From: Paludibacteraceae bacterium
Lineage (GTDB): Bacteria; Bacteroidota; Bacteroidia; Bacteroidales; Paludibacteraceae
Length of the DNA: 64,000 bases
Assembly (NCBI GenBank): GCA_017937025.1
Contig: JAGBEJ010000004.1
Span: 248,001-312,000 of the forward strand
Direction of reading: 5' to 3'
Below the pieces are notes generated by a model. The model was not told the origin of the DNA. It did not search any database and worked only from the letters and a program-made list of their open reading frames with translations. Position 1 is the first letter of the stretch. Every line of letters begins with the position of its first letter. The position numbers and the translations under genes are program-made. Shown here piece by piece: positions 43,461 to 62,737 of the stretch.

Positions 43461-43499
43461 AAGAAGAAAGGCTCGCATTGTCTGCGGGCCTTCTTCTTA
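43461..43499 (+). terminator. Terminator of the permease gene
   Basis: Long hairpin (AAGAAGaAAGGCTCGC with GCGGGCCTTCTTCTT); a U-G pair on the + strand supports that direction. Also abuts the stop of the convergent BspA-like gene. Confidence 0.7.
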
Positions 43500-44927
43500 T
43501 TCCTTTGGCAATTCCTTCGATGGTCTGATGTTTCGGAAATTCATCCAGAATTCGCCTCCCTTGTATTTTTTCAAGCTCATTTTCGGAACATAGAGCGGTA
43601 TGTCGAGGTCGTAAGTCAGGTCGGCGTCGATGATAGGCGGTCTGGCGGCGCGGCATCTTATGTATTTGAGCCCGGTGCAGTCGCCCAGTATCTCGTCGCC
43701 TATCTCCTTCACGCTGCTCGGTATCTCTATCGCAGTCAGCCCCGTGCAGTTCTTGAACGCCCATTTGTCTATGTCGGTCACGCTTCTCGGTATTATTATT
43801 CTCGTTATGTTTTTACATTCCTCGAAGGCGCAGTAACCTATCGTGCTGACGTACTTAGGCACGGAGAATTCGCCCGACACGGTCTGCGGCACTCTTATGA
43901 GTTCGGTCCTGTCCTTGTTGAAGAGGATGCCGTTCCCCGAGTCGTACTCTGTGTTCTCCAGGTCCACGTTTATCGCTGTCAGACTGGAGCATCCGGTGAA
44001 CACGTCGTTTATCTCCTCCACCTTGGCAGGGATGTTTATCGTCGTGATTTTCGCGCAGCCCTCGAAGGCTCTGTCCTCGATGACAGTCACTGTGGCAGGC
44101 ATGTTGAATACGCCTTCCTTGGCTTGCGGCACGGTCAGCATCACGGTTTTGTGGCGGTCATACAGGGCGCCGTTGTCCGATGCGTATTTTGTGTTGCCTT
44201 CCTCCACTGTTATGCTTTTCAGATTGGTGCAGCACCCTATGAAAGCCATTTCGCCTATGTGGCTCACGGTTTTCGCTATCTTTATCTCGCTGCCGTTGTA
44301 TCTCTCGAAGGCGTCGTCTTGGATTGTTTTCACAACGTAGGTCTTGCCGTCGATTTTCACTTTCTGCGGTATGCTCAGTTTGCCCTTCTTCTCGCTCACG
44401 TATGTCACGCTTGCGTACTTGTTGCCCTTGCCTGCCGCTGTTTCTATCTGGTAGTACACGCCGTCTATCTCGGTCGGCATTTCCTCCTTGTTGTACACGT
44501 CGGAGAAGCATCGCCACATCGGTGAGCTTCTGTATCTGCCGTAGCTTGCCTTAGGCACATAGAGCGTGGCGGAGCAGTCTGCGAATCCGGTTGTGAAAGG
44601 CGGTTTGGCGGCATCGCATATTATGAACCTCAGGCTCGGGCAGTCGTCAAAGTCGTCTTTTATCATCGTTATGCTGCTGGGCAGATGCACCATTATCAGG
44701 TCCGGGCTGTCCTTGAACGCGCCTTTTTCTATGCCTTTCACTTGGAACTTCTCGCCGCCGATGTTCACGGTGGCTGGGATTATGACCTCGCCGCTGTATT
44801 TCTTCTCTCCGCCTACGACGTATGCTTCTCCGGCCTCGGTCTCATAGTAGATGCCGTCAGCCTCGCTTGCAGCCCAAGCGGTGCAGGCGCAGACTATTGC
44901 GGCGATTATAGTGAGCAGTTTCTTCAT
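43497..44927 (-). CDS. BspA-like leucine-rich repeat surface protein
   Basis: 476 residues. Signal peptide MKKLLTIIAAIVCACTAWA. Leucine-rich repeats of the BspA/LRR_5 type (units like VTVIEDRAFEGCAKITTINI). The repeat block is capped by LYVPKASYGRYRSSPMW near residue 120 and again by LYVPKMSLKKYKGGEFW near 455, so two cap modules are present, suggesting duplication of a shorter ancestral protein. No C-terminal secretion tag is obvious. Likely extracellular adhesin or binding protein. Confidence 0.85.
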   Translation of the reverse strand: MKKLLTIIAAIVCACTAWAASEADGIYYETEAGEAYVVGGEKKYSGEVIIPATVNIGGEKFQVKGIEKGAFKDSPDLIMVHLPSSITMIKDDFDDCPSLRFIICDAAKPPFTTGFADCSATLYVPKASYGRYRSSPMWRCFSDVYNKEEMPTEIDGVYYQIETAAGKGNKYASVTYVSEKKGKLSIPQKVKIDGKTYVVKTIQDDAFERYNGSEIKIAKTVSHIGEMAFIGCCTNLKSITVEEGNTKYASDNGALYDRHKTVMLTVPQAKEGVFNMPATVTVIEDRAFEGCAKITTINIPAKVEEINDVFTGCSSLTAINVDLENTEYDSGNGILFNKDRTELIRVPQTVSGEFSVPKYVSTIGYCAFEECKNITRIIIPRSVTDIDKWAFKNCTGLTAIEIPSSVKEIGDEILGDCTGLKYIRCRAARPPIIDADLTYDLDIPLYVPKMSLKKYKGGEFWMNFRNIRPSKELPKE

Positions 44928-45040: not shown

Positions 45041-45712
45041 TTATAGTGTGACACATTGTTTATAATTCAGCCACGGTGTGTATTTGCCTATGATTAATTT
45101 TTTGAGATATGCCCTTTGGTGTGGGCTTGTCTTTTTCATTATGTATATGTCACTTTTTAATGCATGGTATGCGTTTGGGTTTATCTCGGGCAACTCCTTT
45201 TCAAGGAAATCCAGTGTGATGGTATGCAACTCTTTTGTCTCTGTGTCGTAGGCGTAATGGTATCTTTTTCCTGCGGGATGTTGGAGAACCATGAAGCCGG
45301 TCAGAAGTCCTATGACCACGCCTGAAACAACTTGCGCAGTGGCGTATAAAGCGGCTCTCTGTTTGGTCATGGCTGCGTTAAACAAGATGTATCTGCCGCT
45401 GCTTATCAGTTTGGTATAGCCTTTCTGAACTTTGAAGGCAGAGCCGTTTAGATATAGAGTGTCCCCGTTTGAGTAAGCCCAGGCTTTTTTCTTCAACAGC
45501 TTTTTTGTCTTTTTGTCCTCGGATTTCAGAACGTAATCATTCCTGTCGTTCGGGCATCCCTTAAGTTTTATTATTTGCGCTGAATCTTTCACAGAAGGTG
45601 TTTTGCTCACTATTTCCTCAAGGCTCATATATATTCCCTGCGGATAATCCTCTTGCGCTGTTGCGCTGTGCGCCATCAATACGGCAACTAATGCCAAAAA
45701 TATGTTTTTCAT
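45041..45712 (-). CDS. Secreted protein of unknown function (DUF6563-like)
   Basis: 223 residues. Signal peptide ending SATAQ. A strand-rich middle (KAWAYSNGDTLYLNGSAFKVQKGYTKL) and one hydrophobic helix near residues 125-145 (AQVVSGVVIGLLTGFMVL). Resembles the DUF6563-type proteins seen in Bacteroidales by its GIYMSLEEIVSKTPS start, but I cannot confirm it. Last gene of the lipoprotein array, 53 bp after the previous gene; that gap contains a coding-like fragment. Confidence 0.65.
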   Translation of the reverse strand: MKNIFLALVAVLMAHSATAQEDYPQGIYMSLEEIVSKTPSVKDSAQIIKLKGCPNDRNDYVLKSEDKKTKKLLKKKAWAYSNGDTLYLNGSAFKVQKGYTKLISSGRYILFNAAMTKQRAALYATAQVVSGVVIGLLTGFMVLQHPAGKRYHYAYDTETKELHTITLDFLEKELPEINPNAYHALKSDIYIMKKTSPHQRAYLKKLIIGKYTPWLNYKQCVTL

Positions 45713-45765
45713 TGTGTTTATAATAATCTAAGAATGTCGTGAAGTTCCTTTCGTACCATTTGTTT

Positions 45766-46212
45766 TTACGGATACTCAAAAGTCACAATGTCTGTAGTTG
45801 GATTCATGTCATAAAAGTTTTCCTTTGTGTATTTGTATGTCTTTAAGACATTTGCTCCATTGGGTAAGGCATCGTACTTTTGTCCTTCTTTTGCTTCTAT
45901 TGGCACTGTAGATATTACAACATAAAATGTGTCAATCTTACTTATTTCAAAGTAATCTGTCCAATAATTATTTCTTCCTTTGAAAAAATCCAAACCACCA
46001 TGTAAAGTGTCAGATGGTGATATTGGACTTCCGCCAATTCTAAGGCAAGCTATTTCCCCATGATTATAAGTGAAAAATGAATATTCTATAATTCTATGAG
46101 AAGAATTGATTACTTGATAATGGATATAGCTTCTTTTCTCTGGATCGAAAAACTTCTCACAAGAAACCAGAAAAAATGCTACAATTATTGTGATTATAAA
46201 AGTATTTTTCAT
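45766..46212 (-). CDS. Array lipoprotein A1
   Basis: 148 residues; lipobox FLVSC. N-terminal half: YIHYQVINSSHRIIEYSFF; C-terminal half nearly identical to the paralogue at 46934 (IDTFYVVIS, PIEAKEGQKYDALP, NVLKTYKYTKENFYD, ending VTFEYP). The first halves differ strongly, giving a variable head and constant tail. A+T-rich. No function known. Confidence 0.75.
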   Translation of the reverse strand: MKNTFIITIIVAFFLVSCEKFFDPEKRSYIHYQVINSSHRIIEYSFFTYNHGEIACLRIGGSPISPSDTLHGGLDFFKGRNNYWTDYFEISKIDTFYVVISTVPIEAKEGQKYDALPNGANVLKTYKYTKENFYDMNPTTDIVTFEYP

Positions 46213-46242
46213 TGTTTTTGTATTTTAAAAGACCTTTGTGTA

Positions 46243-46341
46243 TTAAGGTCTGTAAGGATTATTTGGATAATAAGGATTTATGCTGCGAGGATCTGCAGTG
46301 GGATATCTCCAAAAATCCCATTCGTCATCCGTTTTTTTTAT
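46243..46341 (-). pseudogene. Orphan coding fragment upstream of A1
   Basis: 32 codons without a start codon between a TGA and a TAA, encoding DDEWDFWRYPTADPRSINP and a Tyr/Pro-rich end. Rich in Trp, Tyr and Pro, unlike random A+T-rich DNA. Ends 30 bp before the A1 start. Could be the tail of a lost gene. Confidence 0.4.
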
Positions 46342-46805
46342 TCATATGATTTCACAATTATTCCTTCCATATCTTTCGAAGGAGGATATGTAAGCGGATG
46401 CCGCTCCGAAAAGTGTTCTTTATAATATTGCAGTGGTATATCATATCGTTGCAATATTTGATAATCCTTCACTATCATGTCCCATGGAACGTTTTCACAA
46501 ACACTTTGCAAGATTATGAATATGGTTATTGTGTCTTGAGACACATCCTTGTTTTTATACCAACTCGCACTCCAGCATCTATTTTGTGGAAATGTTCTTG
46601 ATGTGAACCAATAATCATCTTTTGTGGCATGTAAAATTGTGTCGTGTTGAGATTTTATGTCAAAATGCTCGCTTGATAGATGAAATATAGATATTGTGTC
46701 ATTTGAAATGTTTCTAACAACAATTGAGGTATAGCAGTCCTCATCTGTCAATCCCTTGCAGCAAGAAAAAAGCACTGCCAATGTTAAAAAAAATATATAT
46801 TTCAT
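46338..46805 (-). CDS. Array lipoprotein B1
   Basis: 155 residues; lipobox LFSCC. Segment IVVRNISNDTISIFHLSS, then DTITIFIILQ, then LQRYDIPLQYY and YPPSKDME near the end. The same order (NxS strand, DT-hydrophobic strand, a Tyr-rich helix, YPP) occurs in B2 at 47484 and, in looser form, in A1 and A2. A+T-rich; function unknown. Confidence 0.72.
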   Translation of the reverse strand: MKYIFFLTLAVLFSCCKGLTDEDCYTSIVVRNISNDTISIFHLSSEHFDIKSQHDTILHATKDDYWFTSRTFPQNRCWSASWYKNKDVSQDTITIFIILQSVCENVPWDMIVKDYQILQRYDIPLQYYKEHFSERHPLTYPPSKDMEGIIVKSYE

Positions 46806-46818
46806 AGTGTTTGGGGAA

Positions 46819-46947
46819 TTAAAAGCCTAGGAATTCATATGTCGGATGTTCTTTATTAATCTCAGCATTCCACCAATCTTCCCCGAAATGCCTTCTGCCG
46901 TATGCACTCGCTTCGCGCTCGTACCATTTGTTTTTATGGATAAACAA
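46819..46947 (-). pseudogene. Orphan coding fragment after A2
   Basis: 42 codons from a TTG in frame to TAA, overlapping the A2 stop; encodes NKWYEREASAYGRRHFGEDW and ends HPTYEFLGF. The same NKWYER is found in the same place after A1 (45713-45765), there with GAAAGG instead of GAGCGC, three synonymous changes. This supports past coding in this frame. Ends 13 bp before B1. Confidence 0.45.
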
Positions 46948-47398
46948 AAGTTACAACATCAGTCTCAGGATTAAAGTCGTAAAAGCTCTCCTTTGTATAT
47001 TTGTATATTTTCAAGACGTTACTCCCTTTTGGTAAAGCATCATACTTCTGTCCTTCTTTTGCTTCTATTGGTTTTGCGGATATCACCACATAGAATGTGT
47101 CTATTTTTTCTGTATTAAAATAGTCACCCCAAGAGTTCTGCTCTCTCCCATTGTCGTATATAAATCCACCATGTGTGGAATCATTGGGCATGATTGGCTC
47201 ATGCCCGATTACAAAGCAAGTTATATTATCAGCATTATTCATTTTATGATAAAAGAAAGAGAACTCAACTTTAAAATCTGTATTATTCCTTACCCTATAT
47301 GGAATACAATTAGGTTCAGATTCAAGCAGATTCTTGCATGATGTTATGCCCCATAGTGTTATCAACCATCCTACAAGGGCGCATATTATGTTTTTCAT
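46934..47398 (-). CDS. Array lipoprotein A2
   Basis: 154 residues; lipobox GITSC (Cys near residue 21). Head: IPYRVRNNTDFKVEFSFFYH; tail nearly identical to A1 (KIDTFYVVIS, PIEAKEGQKYDALP, YKYTKESFYD). The difference lies in the first half. A+T-rich. Function unknown. Confidence 0.75.
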   Translation of the reverse strand: MKNIICALVGWLITLWGITSCKNLLESEPNCIPYRVRNNTDFKVEFSFFYHKMNNADNITCFVIGHEPIMPNDSTHGGFIYDNGREQNSWGDYFNTEKIDTFYVVISAKPIEAKEGQKYDALPKGSNVLKIYKYTKESFYDFNPETDVVTFVYP

Positions 47399-47483
47399 GT
47401 CTCTTTTATTAGTATATGGATGTTGTGAAGTTTTTATTTCGTATTATTGTTTCTATAGTTGTTATGTCCGGCTGCGCTGATTG

Positions 47484-47975
47484 TCAATTGTTCCCGTTGA
47501 TTATCTCCTCGTATGAAGGTGTCATTTCCATATCCCGCATTTCTGGAGTTGGCGGATAATAAATATGCCAGTTCATTTGACGCAAAAAATCCAAGGTGAG
47601 TTTATAACCGACAATGCATGGCTCCTCAATGTTTGCTTTGTTTGAATCCGCATCAAATATAAATAGCACTAATGTATCAGTTTTGGGTAAATTGTGAAAA
47701 AAAGCCTCCCAATGATCTGGAACATTTGATACGAAATCAATTGCTTTACCTGGGGCTATTTCATTGCGATTAGAATAGTTTGCAGCTATGTTTTGCGCTT
47801 TTGCAAAAGAGATTTCTGGCGATATGCAAAAGTCCTGATATATAATGGCTTTATCTGAATTGTTATGTATTGTAATAAGATAATGCCATTTGTCACTATT
47901 TTCATAATTACAAGATGGGAATGCGAAAACAACGCAGAATAATATTGCGAACGAGATAAGGGGAATGTTTTTCAT
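47484..47975 (-). CDS. Array lipoprotein B2
   Basis: 163 residues from the ATG at 47973-47975 (MKNIPLISFAILFCVVFAF), with lipobox FPSC; an upstream in-frame start at 48032 adds residues without a signal. Strand YLITIHNNSDKAIIY, then DTLVLFIFDAD, then MNWHIYYPPTPEM near the end. Distant relative of B1. After the TGA stop the same frame stays open for 24 codons (47406-47480). First gene of the array transcript. Confidence 0.72.
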   Translation of the reverse strand: MKNIPLISFAILFCVVFAFPSCNYENSDKWHYLITIHNNSDKAIIYQDFCISPEISFAKAQNIAANYSNRNEIAPGKAIDFVSNVPDHWEAFFHNLPKTDTLVLFIFDADSNKANIEEPCIVGYKLTLDFLRQMNWHIYYPPTPEMRDMEMTPSYEEIINGNN

Positions 47976-48031
47976 GTTTTGTGTATGCTTTGTTTTTGTT
48001 TTGTTGCATTTTAGCGTGTCACAAAGCCACA

Positions 48032-48039
48032 CAAAGTTA
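48032..48039 (-). promoter_or_regulatory. Promoter -7 box TAACTTTG of the lipoprotein array
   Basis: Minus-strand TAnnTTTG, 56 nt before the B2 start; no other box is seen before the array terminator, so the five genes may form one transcript. Confidence 0.65.
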
Positions 48040-61189: not shown

Positions 61190-62737
61190 ATGAATTTTGA
61201 CATCTCAAGAAAAACGAGAATGAAAGGAACGACTTTATCATCTATCCGACGAGTGGCTATAACGCTGCTCGTCATGCTTTTTACAACGGCGAGTGCTTGG
61301 GCACAGTTTTTCCCACCAACAAACTACCAACTCTCCTTGAGCGCAAACTATCAGGGAGGTGCTATAGGAATGGTTGATGTTCCAATTTCTGAACCAACCA
61401 CCACCTATACGCTAACACAAAATGATGAACCAATCCGTACAGATTATATATTTGAAGGTTGGTCAACATCATCGACAGGGGATGTAGAATATAAAACTGG
61501 TGACCCGGTAGAATTAACTGGCAATTTGACGCTTTATGCGATATGGGAGGACGCTCCCTATGAATTGACATACACTATCACCAATAAAGAAAAAAAACAA
61601 GTGGAGTTGTCAGGATATGAAGGAGATAAGCCCGCAGGAGTCTTGAACATCCCTGCCACCGTTACAATAAATGGTATAGAATATTCTGTGACGAGCATTG
61701 GGGAAAAAGCCTTTGAGAATTGTGACAACCTTCAATCTGTCACTATCCCTAATAGCGTTACGAGCATTGATTTTAGTGCCTTTTTGTGGTGTAGAAACCT
61801 TCAATCTGTCACTATCCCTAATAGCGTTACGAGCATTGGGGATTGTGCCTTTGCTGCTTGTAACAGCCTTCAATCTATCACTATCCCTAACAAGGTGACG
61901 AGCATTGGAAATCATGCCTTTGAAAATTGCACAAACCTTCAATCTATCACTATCCCTAACAAGGTGACGAGCATTGGGGCTTATGCCTTTTCTTGGTGTG
62001 AAAACCTTCAATCTGTCACTATCCCTAACAGCGTGACAAGCATTGGAAATCATGCCTTTGAGTTTTGTTACAGCCTCCAATATGTCAATATCAATGGCAA
62101 TCCGAAGATTGGAACTGACGCCTTTTGGAAAACCCCTGCGACTGTGGCAATTAACCTGACGGCAAGCCCAATAGACGGAGATTATTGGACTACCTTCTAT
62201 AACAACGGCTATAACTTCCAAGCTGATGGGAATACCACGGTGTATAAAGGAACGGTGAATGAATCATCACTCATGCTGACGGAAGTGGAAGACAAGATTG
62301 TAAATTCTGGCACAGCGGTAATACTGAAATCATCAGGCAATCCAGTTATGACTCTTACAGAATCAGGCAGCAGCGATACTAACGGCAACGACCTGCGAGG
62401 TATAAGCGATAGGACCTTGCGTACAGATGTTATATCCAATTTCAGCGCTAACGAGATTTACACAATGGGCAATACATCGGCAGGCTTCGGTTTCCACAGA
62501 TACACAGGTGAGTATGTTCCGGCAGGTGAGGCATTTCTTCCACTCAACACAGATGGGGCTGTGGTTGAGAGTTTTGCTATTGTTTTGCCCAGCGTTTCGT
62601 CAACAGGTATTAAGCCCGTTTCTTCCGACAAAGATTTGCAGAAACACTGGTTCACTATCAGCGGCGCACGTCTGGGCGGCAAGCCTTCACATCCAGGCGT
62701 TTACATTAATGGAAACAAGAAGGTGATGATTAAATAA
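61190..62737 (+). CDS. BspA-like LRR protein with InlB-type repeat
   Basis: 515 residues; start 61190 (an ATG at 61220 is equally possible and gives a shorter signal region). Signal peptide ends ASAWAQ. Residues ~45-125 hold a Listeria-Bacteroides repeat (EGWSTSSTGDVEYKTGDPV, LTGNLTLYAIWED), then five to six LRR_5 units of 23 residues (LQSVTIPNSVTSIG plus A-F-x-x-C), a beta domain, and a C-terminal tail ISGARLGGKPSHPGVYINGN like those on secreted Bacteroidales proteins. Only 9 bp after the fumarase stop, with no promoter seen. Confidence 0.85.
   Translation: MNFDISRKTRMKGTTLSSIRRVAITLLVMLFTTASAWAQFFPPTNYQLSLSANYQGGAIGMVDVPISEPTTTYTLTQNDEPIRTDYIFEGWSTSSTGDVEYKTGDPVELTGNLTLYAIWEDAPYELTYTITNKEKKQVELSGYEGDKPAGVLNIPATVTINGIEYSVTSIGEKAFENCDNLQSVTIPNSVTSIDFSAFLWCRNLQSVTIPNSVTSIGDCAFAACNSLQSITIPNKVTSIGNHAFENCTNLQSITIPNKVTSIGAYAFSWCENLQSVTIPNSVTSIGNHAFEFCYSLQYVNINGNPKIGTDAFWKTPATVAINLTASPIDGDYWTTFYNNGYNFQADGNTTVYKGTVNESSLMLTEVEDKIVNSGTAVILKSSGNPVMTLTESGSSDTNGNDLRGISDRTLRTDVISNFSANEIYTMGNTSAGFGFHRYTGEYVPAGEAFLPLNTDGAVVESFAIVLPSVSSTGIKPVSSDKDLQKHWFTISGARLGGKPSHPGVYINGNKKVMIK
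61729..62073 (+). repeat. Five tandem 69-bp repeats in the BspA-like gene
   Basis: Units start at 61729, 61798, 61867, 61936 and 62005, each beginning CCTTCAATCT and encoding 23 residues. Neighbouring units share long identical stretches (units 1-2, and 3-4), a sign of recent slippage or gene conversion. Confidence 0.95.

What the first reader, a model, noticed from the sequence alone, without database searches (positions are those of the whole stretch)
45041..48039. Array of divergent lipoproteins with A-B-A-B order
Reading the minus strand, the order is B2-A2-B1-A1 plus a fifth secreted protein. A1 and A2 have nearly identical C-terminal halves and unrelated N-terminal halves; B1 and B2 share a looser pattern (Asn-x-Ser strand, DT plus hydrophobic strand, YPP). 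All four may be one superfamily. The block is A+T-rich and lacks any enzyme, which fits a recombining cassette such as immunity, phage-exclusion or surface-variation genes.
Basis: partly seen in the sequence, partly recalled or inferred. Interest (0 to 1): 0.6.

Follow-up and report, generated by a model that had tools for sequence, protein, structure and literature searches.

The report
Orphan immunity array with toxin scars
A bacterium that carries no copy of the weapon keeps a shuffled row of four antidote lipoproteins against a family of Rhs protein-cutting toxins used by its relatives, with the last few codons of deleted toxin genes still lying between the antidotes.

Summary
The array is real. 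On the minus strand the order is B2-A2-B1-A1, then an unrelated secreted DUF6563 protein. The four lipoproteins are one superfamily, absent from Pfam, NCBIfam, PHROGs and PADLOC. Elsewhere in Bacteroidota, members of this family sit directly downstream of secreted SpvB/Rhs polymorphic toxins that end in a zinc-peptidase-like domain (HEYGHxxQ...WxExxAN). A toxin gene lies directly upstream in 26 of 63 homologues, against 1 of 384 control genes. In the reverse test, 25 of 27 toxins found by a toxin-only search have a family member as next gene.

The window keeps the last ~38 codons of such a toxin between A2 and B1, and a second, probable toxin tail between B1 and A1. No Rhs core was found in any of the six genomes of the genus. 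The best reading is a homogeneous polyimmunity locus: orphan immunity lipoproteins left or collected by Rhs C-terminal displacement and kept against non-kin toxins.

It is not rAID: no recombinase lies within 80 kb. Protection itself is inferred, not shown.

The parts
47484..47975 (-). B2: 163-aa predicted immunity lipoprotein (lipobox FPSC)
   Evidence: B-family alignments A2 and A4; lipobox Cys invariant in 27/27 members of A4; AlphaFold model pLDDT 82.6
46934..47398 (-). A2: 154-aa predicted immunity lipoprotein (lipobox ITSC)
   Evidence: Found by the B-only profile at 3e-5; AlphaFold model pLDDT 83.8
46819..46938 (-). Scar 1: last ~38 codons and stop of a deleted Rhs zincin toxin (HKNKWYEREASAYGRRHFGEDWWNAEINKEHPTYEFLGF*), out of frame with A2, its start abutting A2's stop
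   Evidence: Only hit in the 2.2-Mb genome to the toxin of G008 (59% over 38 aa, E=1.1e-4); toxin HMM; tail profile finds only this scar, three toxins of B-family loci and one marginal hit (E=0.0097) in 393 genomes
46338..46805 (-). B1: 155-aa predicted immunity lipoprotein, 13 nt after scar 1
   Evidence: B-profile hit; 99% identical nucleotide copy at the syntenic site of G004
46243..46332 (-). Scar 2: probable last ~29 codons of a second toxin (TDDEWDFWRYPTADPRSINPYYPNNPYRP*)
   Evidence: Copies before A genes in G004 (79-90% identity) and before B3 at the second locus in G000 (70%); W-D-F..Y-P pattern as in toxin tails of L060; not scored by the toxin HMM, so weaker
45766..46212 (-). A1: 148-aa predicted immunity lipoprotein (lipobox LVSC)
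   Evidence: Found by the B-only profile
45747..45767 (-). 7-codon stub of scar 1 (KNKWYER) behind A1's stop, joined to the 5' flank of the DUF6563 gene
   Evidence: Frame translation; same join in G004
45041..45712 (-). DUF6563 secreted protein at the array's end; not an immunity homologue
   Evidence: PF20201 E=5.9e-17; absent from this place in G001; its signal-peptide start is duplicated and joined to a scar-2-like tail upstream of B3

Best explanation
The array is a homogeneous polyimmunity locus: four orphan immunity lipoproteins of one new family. The cognate attackers are Sec-exported SpvB/Rhs polymorphic toxins whose C-terminus is a predicted zinc-dependent peptidase (HEYGHxxQ ... WxExxAN). 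Proposed mechanism: each lipoprotein is anchored in the cell envelope of the recipient and binds and blocks an incoming toxin domain there. Shown: family membership, toxin linkage elsewhere, toxin tail in the window, no Rhs core found in the genus, species-to-species reshuffling. Inferred: location, binding, protection, the toxin's peptidase activity, and that the array arose by Rhs C-terminal displacement followed by deletion of all toxin sequence except short tails.
For: 1) The B-only profile hits 52 of 393 Bacteroidales genomes. 26 of 63 hits outside the own genome (19 of 39 loci) have a zincin-toxin ORF <100 bp upstream, against 1 of 384 other ORFs in the same loci. 2) Reverse test: a toxin-only query in genome contigs gives 25 of 27 assessable Bacteroidota toxins with a B-family next gene, including Flavobacteriales and Cytophagales. 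3) Scar 1 is the toxin's C-terminus; the tail profile in 393 genomes finds this scar, three toxins that sit in B-family loci and one marginal hit. 4) The same tail+immunity layout is repeated in G428; toxins with tandem B-family genes occur in L057, L064, L066, L070. 5) No Rhs core in 6 of 6 genomes of the genus. 6) Content varies at the syntenic site: B4-scar1-B1-scar2-A in G004, one mosaic A in G001, and an A3-like gene sits at the main site in G004 but A3 lies 250 kb away in G000. 7) Lipobox Cys invariant in 27/27. 8) Toxins carry SpvB, RHS and FG-GAP domains and a signal peptide.
Against: No protection or expression data. Scar 2 is not recognised by the toxin HMM. A proteins were not found next to an intact toxin; they join the family only through profile similarity, fold order and shared array position. 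About half of the B-family loci have no intact toxin directly upstream, some because contigs end. No known immunity fold was matched in the PDB. The two AlphaFold alignments share sequences, so the fold agreement is not fully independent.
Confidence: 0.78

Rival explanations
1. Passive debris: leftovers of a dead Rhs toxin locus, with immunity genes drifting and giving no protection.
For: Toxin tails without toxins, no Rhs core in the genus, one frameshifted A gene in G004, A+T-rich block.
Against: All four genes are intact with lipobox; B1 is 99% identical between species; immunity modules are multiplied and reshuffled while toxin sequence is lost, both here and in G428.
Confidence: 0.14
2. 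The lipoproteins are accessories of the Rhs toxins (export, anchoring or chaperone parts) rather than antidotes.
For: Position directly behind the toxin gene and lipoprotein nature fit either role.
Against: They persist and multiply without any toxin or Rhs gene in the genus; up to five divergent copies follow one toxin (L070); the family is highly divergent, as immunity proteins are.
Confidence: 0.05
3. Surface-variation or phage-exclusion lipoproteins.
For: Secreted, divergent, recombining; one very weak PHROG match of B1 to the Cor exclusion family over the N-terminal region with the signal peptide (E=0.03).
Against: No phage or plasmid homologue by tblastn, no PADLOC match, strong toxin linkage.
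Confidence: 0.03

Closest known systems
Polyimmunity loci (Zhang et al. 2012, PMC3482391)
   Same: Four tandem, co-oriented, closely spaced paralogous immunity genes without intact toxins; content differs between related genomes.
   Different: Immunity family not in Pfam/NCBIfam; extracytoplasmic lipoproteins, whereas most listed families are cytoplasmic; short toxin tails remain between the genes; no recombinase nearby.
Orphan rhs-CT/rhsI and cdiA-CT/cdiI modules formed by C-terminal displacement (PMC3150448, PMC8125069)
   Same: Toxin C-terminal sequence followed by an immunity gene, repeated in arrays; G428 and L060 still hold larger toxin fragments.
   Different: In the window only the last ~30-38 codons of the toxin are left and no full-length Rhs was found in the genus.
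rAID / AID orphan immunity clusters of Bacteroidales (PMC12247911)
   Same: Orphan immunity genes, short, co-oriented, low G+C, Bacteroidales.
   Different: No tyrosine recombinase within 80 kb; intergenic repeats are toxin tails; cognate toxins are Sec-exported SpvB/Rhs proteins, not evident T6SS effectors.
VgrG2b-PA0261 (Tpe-Tpi) metallopeptidase effector and immunity (PMC6899460)
   Same: Works alike: an HExxH toxin active in the periplasm, neutralised by an envelope-located immunity protein, a lipoprotein in some species.
   Different: No detected sequence relation; different delivery (T6SS VgrG against SpvB/Rhs with signal peptide).
Tox-MPTase1-5 and PVC-metallopeptidase toxin domains (PMC3482391)
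   Same: Zincin motif HExxH, for the PVC type HExxHxxQ-E, in toxins that include C-terminal domains of RHS proteins.
   Different: No Pfam model matches the toxin domain; that survey lists no immunity partner for Tox-MPTases.

Membership tests
Polyimmunity locus | Tandem, same-orientation immunity genes with small gaps; four or more for an extended locus | tested here: met
   Four genes, gaps of 86-129 bp
Polyimmunity locus | Members belong to families paired with toxins elsewhere | tested here: met
   26/63 forward, 25/27 reverse; for A members only via homology to B
[quoted passage not shown]
   No intact toxin; only tails of 7-38 codons
Polyimmunity locus | Content differs between closely related genomes | tested here: met
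   G000, G001, G004 compared at the same site; species level only, no strains available
rAID system | Adjacent tyrosine recombinase | tested here: not met
   PF00589: three hits in the genome, nearest 86 kb away
rAID system | Co-oriented short genes below 41% G+C | tested here: met
rAID system | Conserved intergenic motifs | tested here: inconclusive
   Shared intergenic sequence exists but is toxin coding sequence
Orphan Rhs-CT/RhsI module | Toxin C-terminal fragment directly upstream of an immunity gene | tested here: met
   Scar 1 before B1; scar 2 before A1 is probable only
Orphan Rhs-CT/RhsI module | Linked full-length rhs gene | tested here: not met
   No Rhs core in six genomes of the genus
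Tpe-Tpi (VgrG2b/PA0261) | Sequence homology of toxin and immunity | tested here: inconclusive
   Toxin and immunity profiles find no relative among PDB chains; no Pfam/NCBIfam match; no direct comparison with PA0261 was run
Zinc metallopeptidase toxin | HExxH plus third ligand, catalytic activity | tested here: inconclusive
   HEYGH and a downstream E invariant in the seven-toxin alignment; activity not testable here

The most novel reading that the evidence does not exclude
The unit that moves is 'toxin tail + immunity gene' with a fixed boundary: the stop codon of one immunity gene abuts the codons for (K)WYE of the next toxin tail in two genera and behind at least three different immunity 3' ends. 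The tails would serve as homology arms by which orphan immunity genes are added, lost and swapped without a dedicated recombinase.
Probability: 0.3. Interest if true: 0.7.

Novelty: new variant of a known kind. Interest (0 to 1): 0.52.

Why it matters
It gives a likely function and a partner to a widespread Bacteroidota family of uncharacterised lipoproteins and to a zincin toxin domain of SpvB/Rhs proteins that Pfam does not describe. It also shows intermediate stages from toxin-immunity pair, through orphan cassettes, to a toxin-free antidote array, so the origin of polyimmunity loci can be read from the scars. Specificity can be tested pair by pair.

Tried and rejected
Pfam, NCBIfam, PHROGs and PADLOC scans of the array proteins gave only DUF6563. 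NCBIfam on the family gave one isolated weak TsiR match (E=0.0019, one of 27), not interpreted. Foldseek against the PDB gave nothing below E=0.001 for either model. Marginal hits of scar 2 (E 0.02-0.07) in other genera were read and look like chance. The idea that the scars are structured recombination sites was tested by DNA folding: z=0.7 and 0.4 for scar 1-type tails, not supported. Pairwise A-B alignments are not convincing (z at most 3.4); only the profile shows the relation.

Full report
Observation. The block holds five minus-strand ORFs: B2 47484-47975, A2 46934-47398, B1 46338-46805, A1 45766-46212 and a DUF6563 protein 45041-45712. The first four begin with a lipoprotein signal. G+C is 34-40% in a ~50% neighbourhood of housekeeping genes: polA, ArsP-like permease and BspA-like LRR on one side; 5-FTHF cyclo-ligase, rodA/ftsW, PBP2 and mreDCB on the other (gene names other than the permease and LRR are my reading of the translations). 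A1 and A2 are 81% identical in the C-terminal half and 39% in the N-terminal half; the latter is highly significant (z=22), so 'unrelated' is wrong. A profile of B proteins alone finds the A proteins, so all four are one superfamily. AlphaFold models of A2 and B2 (pLDDT 84 and 83) show a similar order of strands and helices.

Second copy. The same genome has another B-A pair (B3, A3) at C13:40245-41265, 250 kb away.

The key lead. In G008, a family member lies 12 bp behind a 1,730-aa Rhs protein whose last residues, SHKWYEIEASYYGKRHF...IEKAHPTHK, resemble a translated stretch in the gap between A2 and B1 of the window, NKWYEREASAYGRRHF...NKEHPTYEFLGF, which is out of frame with A2. Searching the whole own genome with the C-terminal 415 residues of that Rhs protein returns only this gap (59% over 38 aa, E=1.1e-4).

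Forward test. The B profile matches 52 of 393 Bacteroidales genomes. Forty regions were fetched. Outside the own genome, 26 of 63 family genes (19 of 39 loci) have an ORF with the toxin domain less than 100 bp upstream, against 1 of 384 other ORFs of at least 120 aa in the same loci. The domain carries HEYGHxxQSxxxG and W(Y/F)ExxA(N/S); HEYGH and the downstream Glu are invariant in a seven-toxin alignment. I read these as zinc ligands and catalytic Glu; activity is inferred. Pfam has no model for it. The full proteins have a signal peptide and SpvB, FG-GAP and RHS domains; one is preceded by a gene with a T9SS sorting domain, so they look Sec-exported rather than T6SS-loaded.

Reverse test. 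A toxin-only alignment scanned over genome contigs and read downstream: 25 of 27 assessable Bacteroidota toxins are followed by a B-profile gene, including Flavobacteriales, Cytophagales and Dyadobacter soli. 'Assessable' is my count: toxins whose contig ends, or that have no ORF of at least 70 aa within 150 bp, were left out. The Firmicutes hits of that scan are mostly short HEYGH proteins without such a neighbour.

The scars. Scar 1 is the best toxin-HMM match in the six-frame translation of the window (E=0.0066) and is found upstream of B1 in the targeted test (E=5.7e-4). A profile of this tail in 393 genomes finds only scar 1, three toxins that all sit in B-family loci (L057, L064, L066) and one marginal hit. 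Scar 2, before A1, is probable: it recurs before A genes in G004 and before B3 in the own genome and fits the WDFxxYP tail pattern of L060 toxins, but the HMM does not score it. In L005 a scar-2-like tail is fused to the signal-peptide start of a DUF6563 gene, which looks like a recombination product.

Variation. At the same site G004 has B4-scar1-B1-scar2-A at one contig end and the tail end of another B, scar 2, a frameshifted A3-like gene and DUF6563 at another. G001 has one A gene next to the flank; it is a mosaic, A1-like for 240 nt (69-90%), A2-like for 180 nt (82-92%), then A1-like (97%). The G004 A gene is 91-100% identical to A3 for 360 nt and then A2-like. Contigs are fragmented in both, so full arrays are not known.

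Intermediates. In G428, another genus of the family, immunity genes alternate with 35-codon toxin tails, and a second locus still holds Rhs-core pieces and larger toxin pieces. In L060, family genes alternate with orphan toxin cassettes, several of them intact; in L070 five tandem copies follow one toxin. This fits C-terminal displacement, known from Rhs and CDI (PMC3150448, PMC8125069), followed by toxin loss. Junctions are striking: the stop codon of the upstream immunity gene abuts the codons for (K)WYE in A1, A2, B4 of G004 and in G428. I could not decide between common descent of a few junctions and a preferred boundary.

Why orphan. No genome of the genus shows an Rhs core (only two of the six are at least 90% complete), so the genes cannot serve self-protection here as far as the assemblies show. 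Orphan immunity against toxins of other strains is established for Bacteroidales rAID genes (PMC12247911) and orphan CdiI (PMC3150448). A mechanistic parallel for an HExxH periplasmic toxin blocked by an envelope immunity protein is VgrG2b-PA0261 (PMC6899460). This is likeness of function, not membership.

Filing. All tested features of a polyimmunity locus (PMC3482391) are met. The rAID definition fails on the recombinase. I call it a new variant: new lipoprotein immunity family, new toxin partner, toxin tails retained.

Organism. Unnamed; G008 of the same family matches a public record labelled Paludibacteraceae (contig lengths agree), so the window probably belongs to that family. Strains of the species were not available.

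Noticed in passing
window 46213-46300, minus strand: Terminator-like hairpin (AGACCTT...AAGGTCT followed by T's) shortly before the A1 start codon; the 128-nt stretch folds better than shuffles (z=-3.1). It could limit A1 expression.
   Followed up: partly
L005:5109-5243 (G000:C13:40108-40242): Small ORF joining the signal-peptide start of a DUF6563 protein to a scar-2-like toxin tail, directly upstream of B3.
   Followed up: partly
L111:7157-10881 and L112:5656-12402: G428: arrays of immunity genes with repeated toxin-tail modules and Rhs-core fragments, a good intermediate stage of array formation.
   Followed up: partly
L060 (G341:C1:165000-184900): Family genes alternating with small HEYGH toxin cassettes, several intact, near one long toxin ORF.
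   Followed up: partly
L057:15302-15694 and L064:14288-14683: Gene just upstream of the Rhs toxin encodes a short protein with a YPNPVK motif; the L057 copy matches the Por_Secre_tail domain, a possible T9SS link of toxin delivery.
   Followed up: partly
window 43497-44927 and 61190-62737: Two BspA-like leucine-rich repeat proteins, one bordering the array (the second by my reading of its translation).
   Followed up: no
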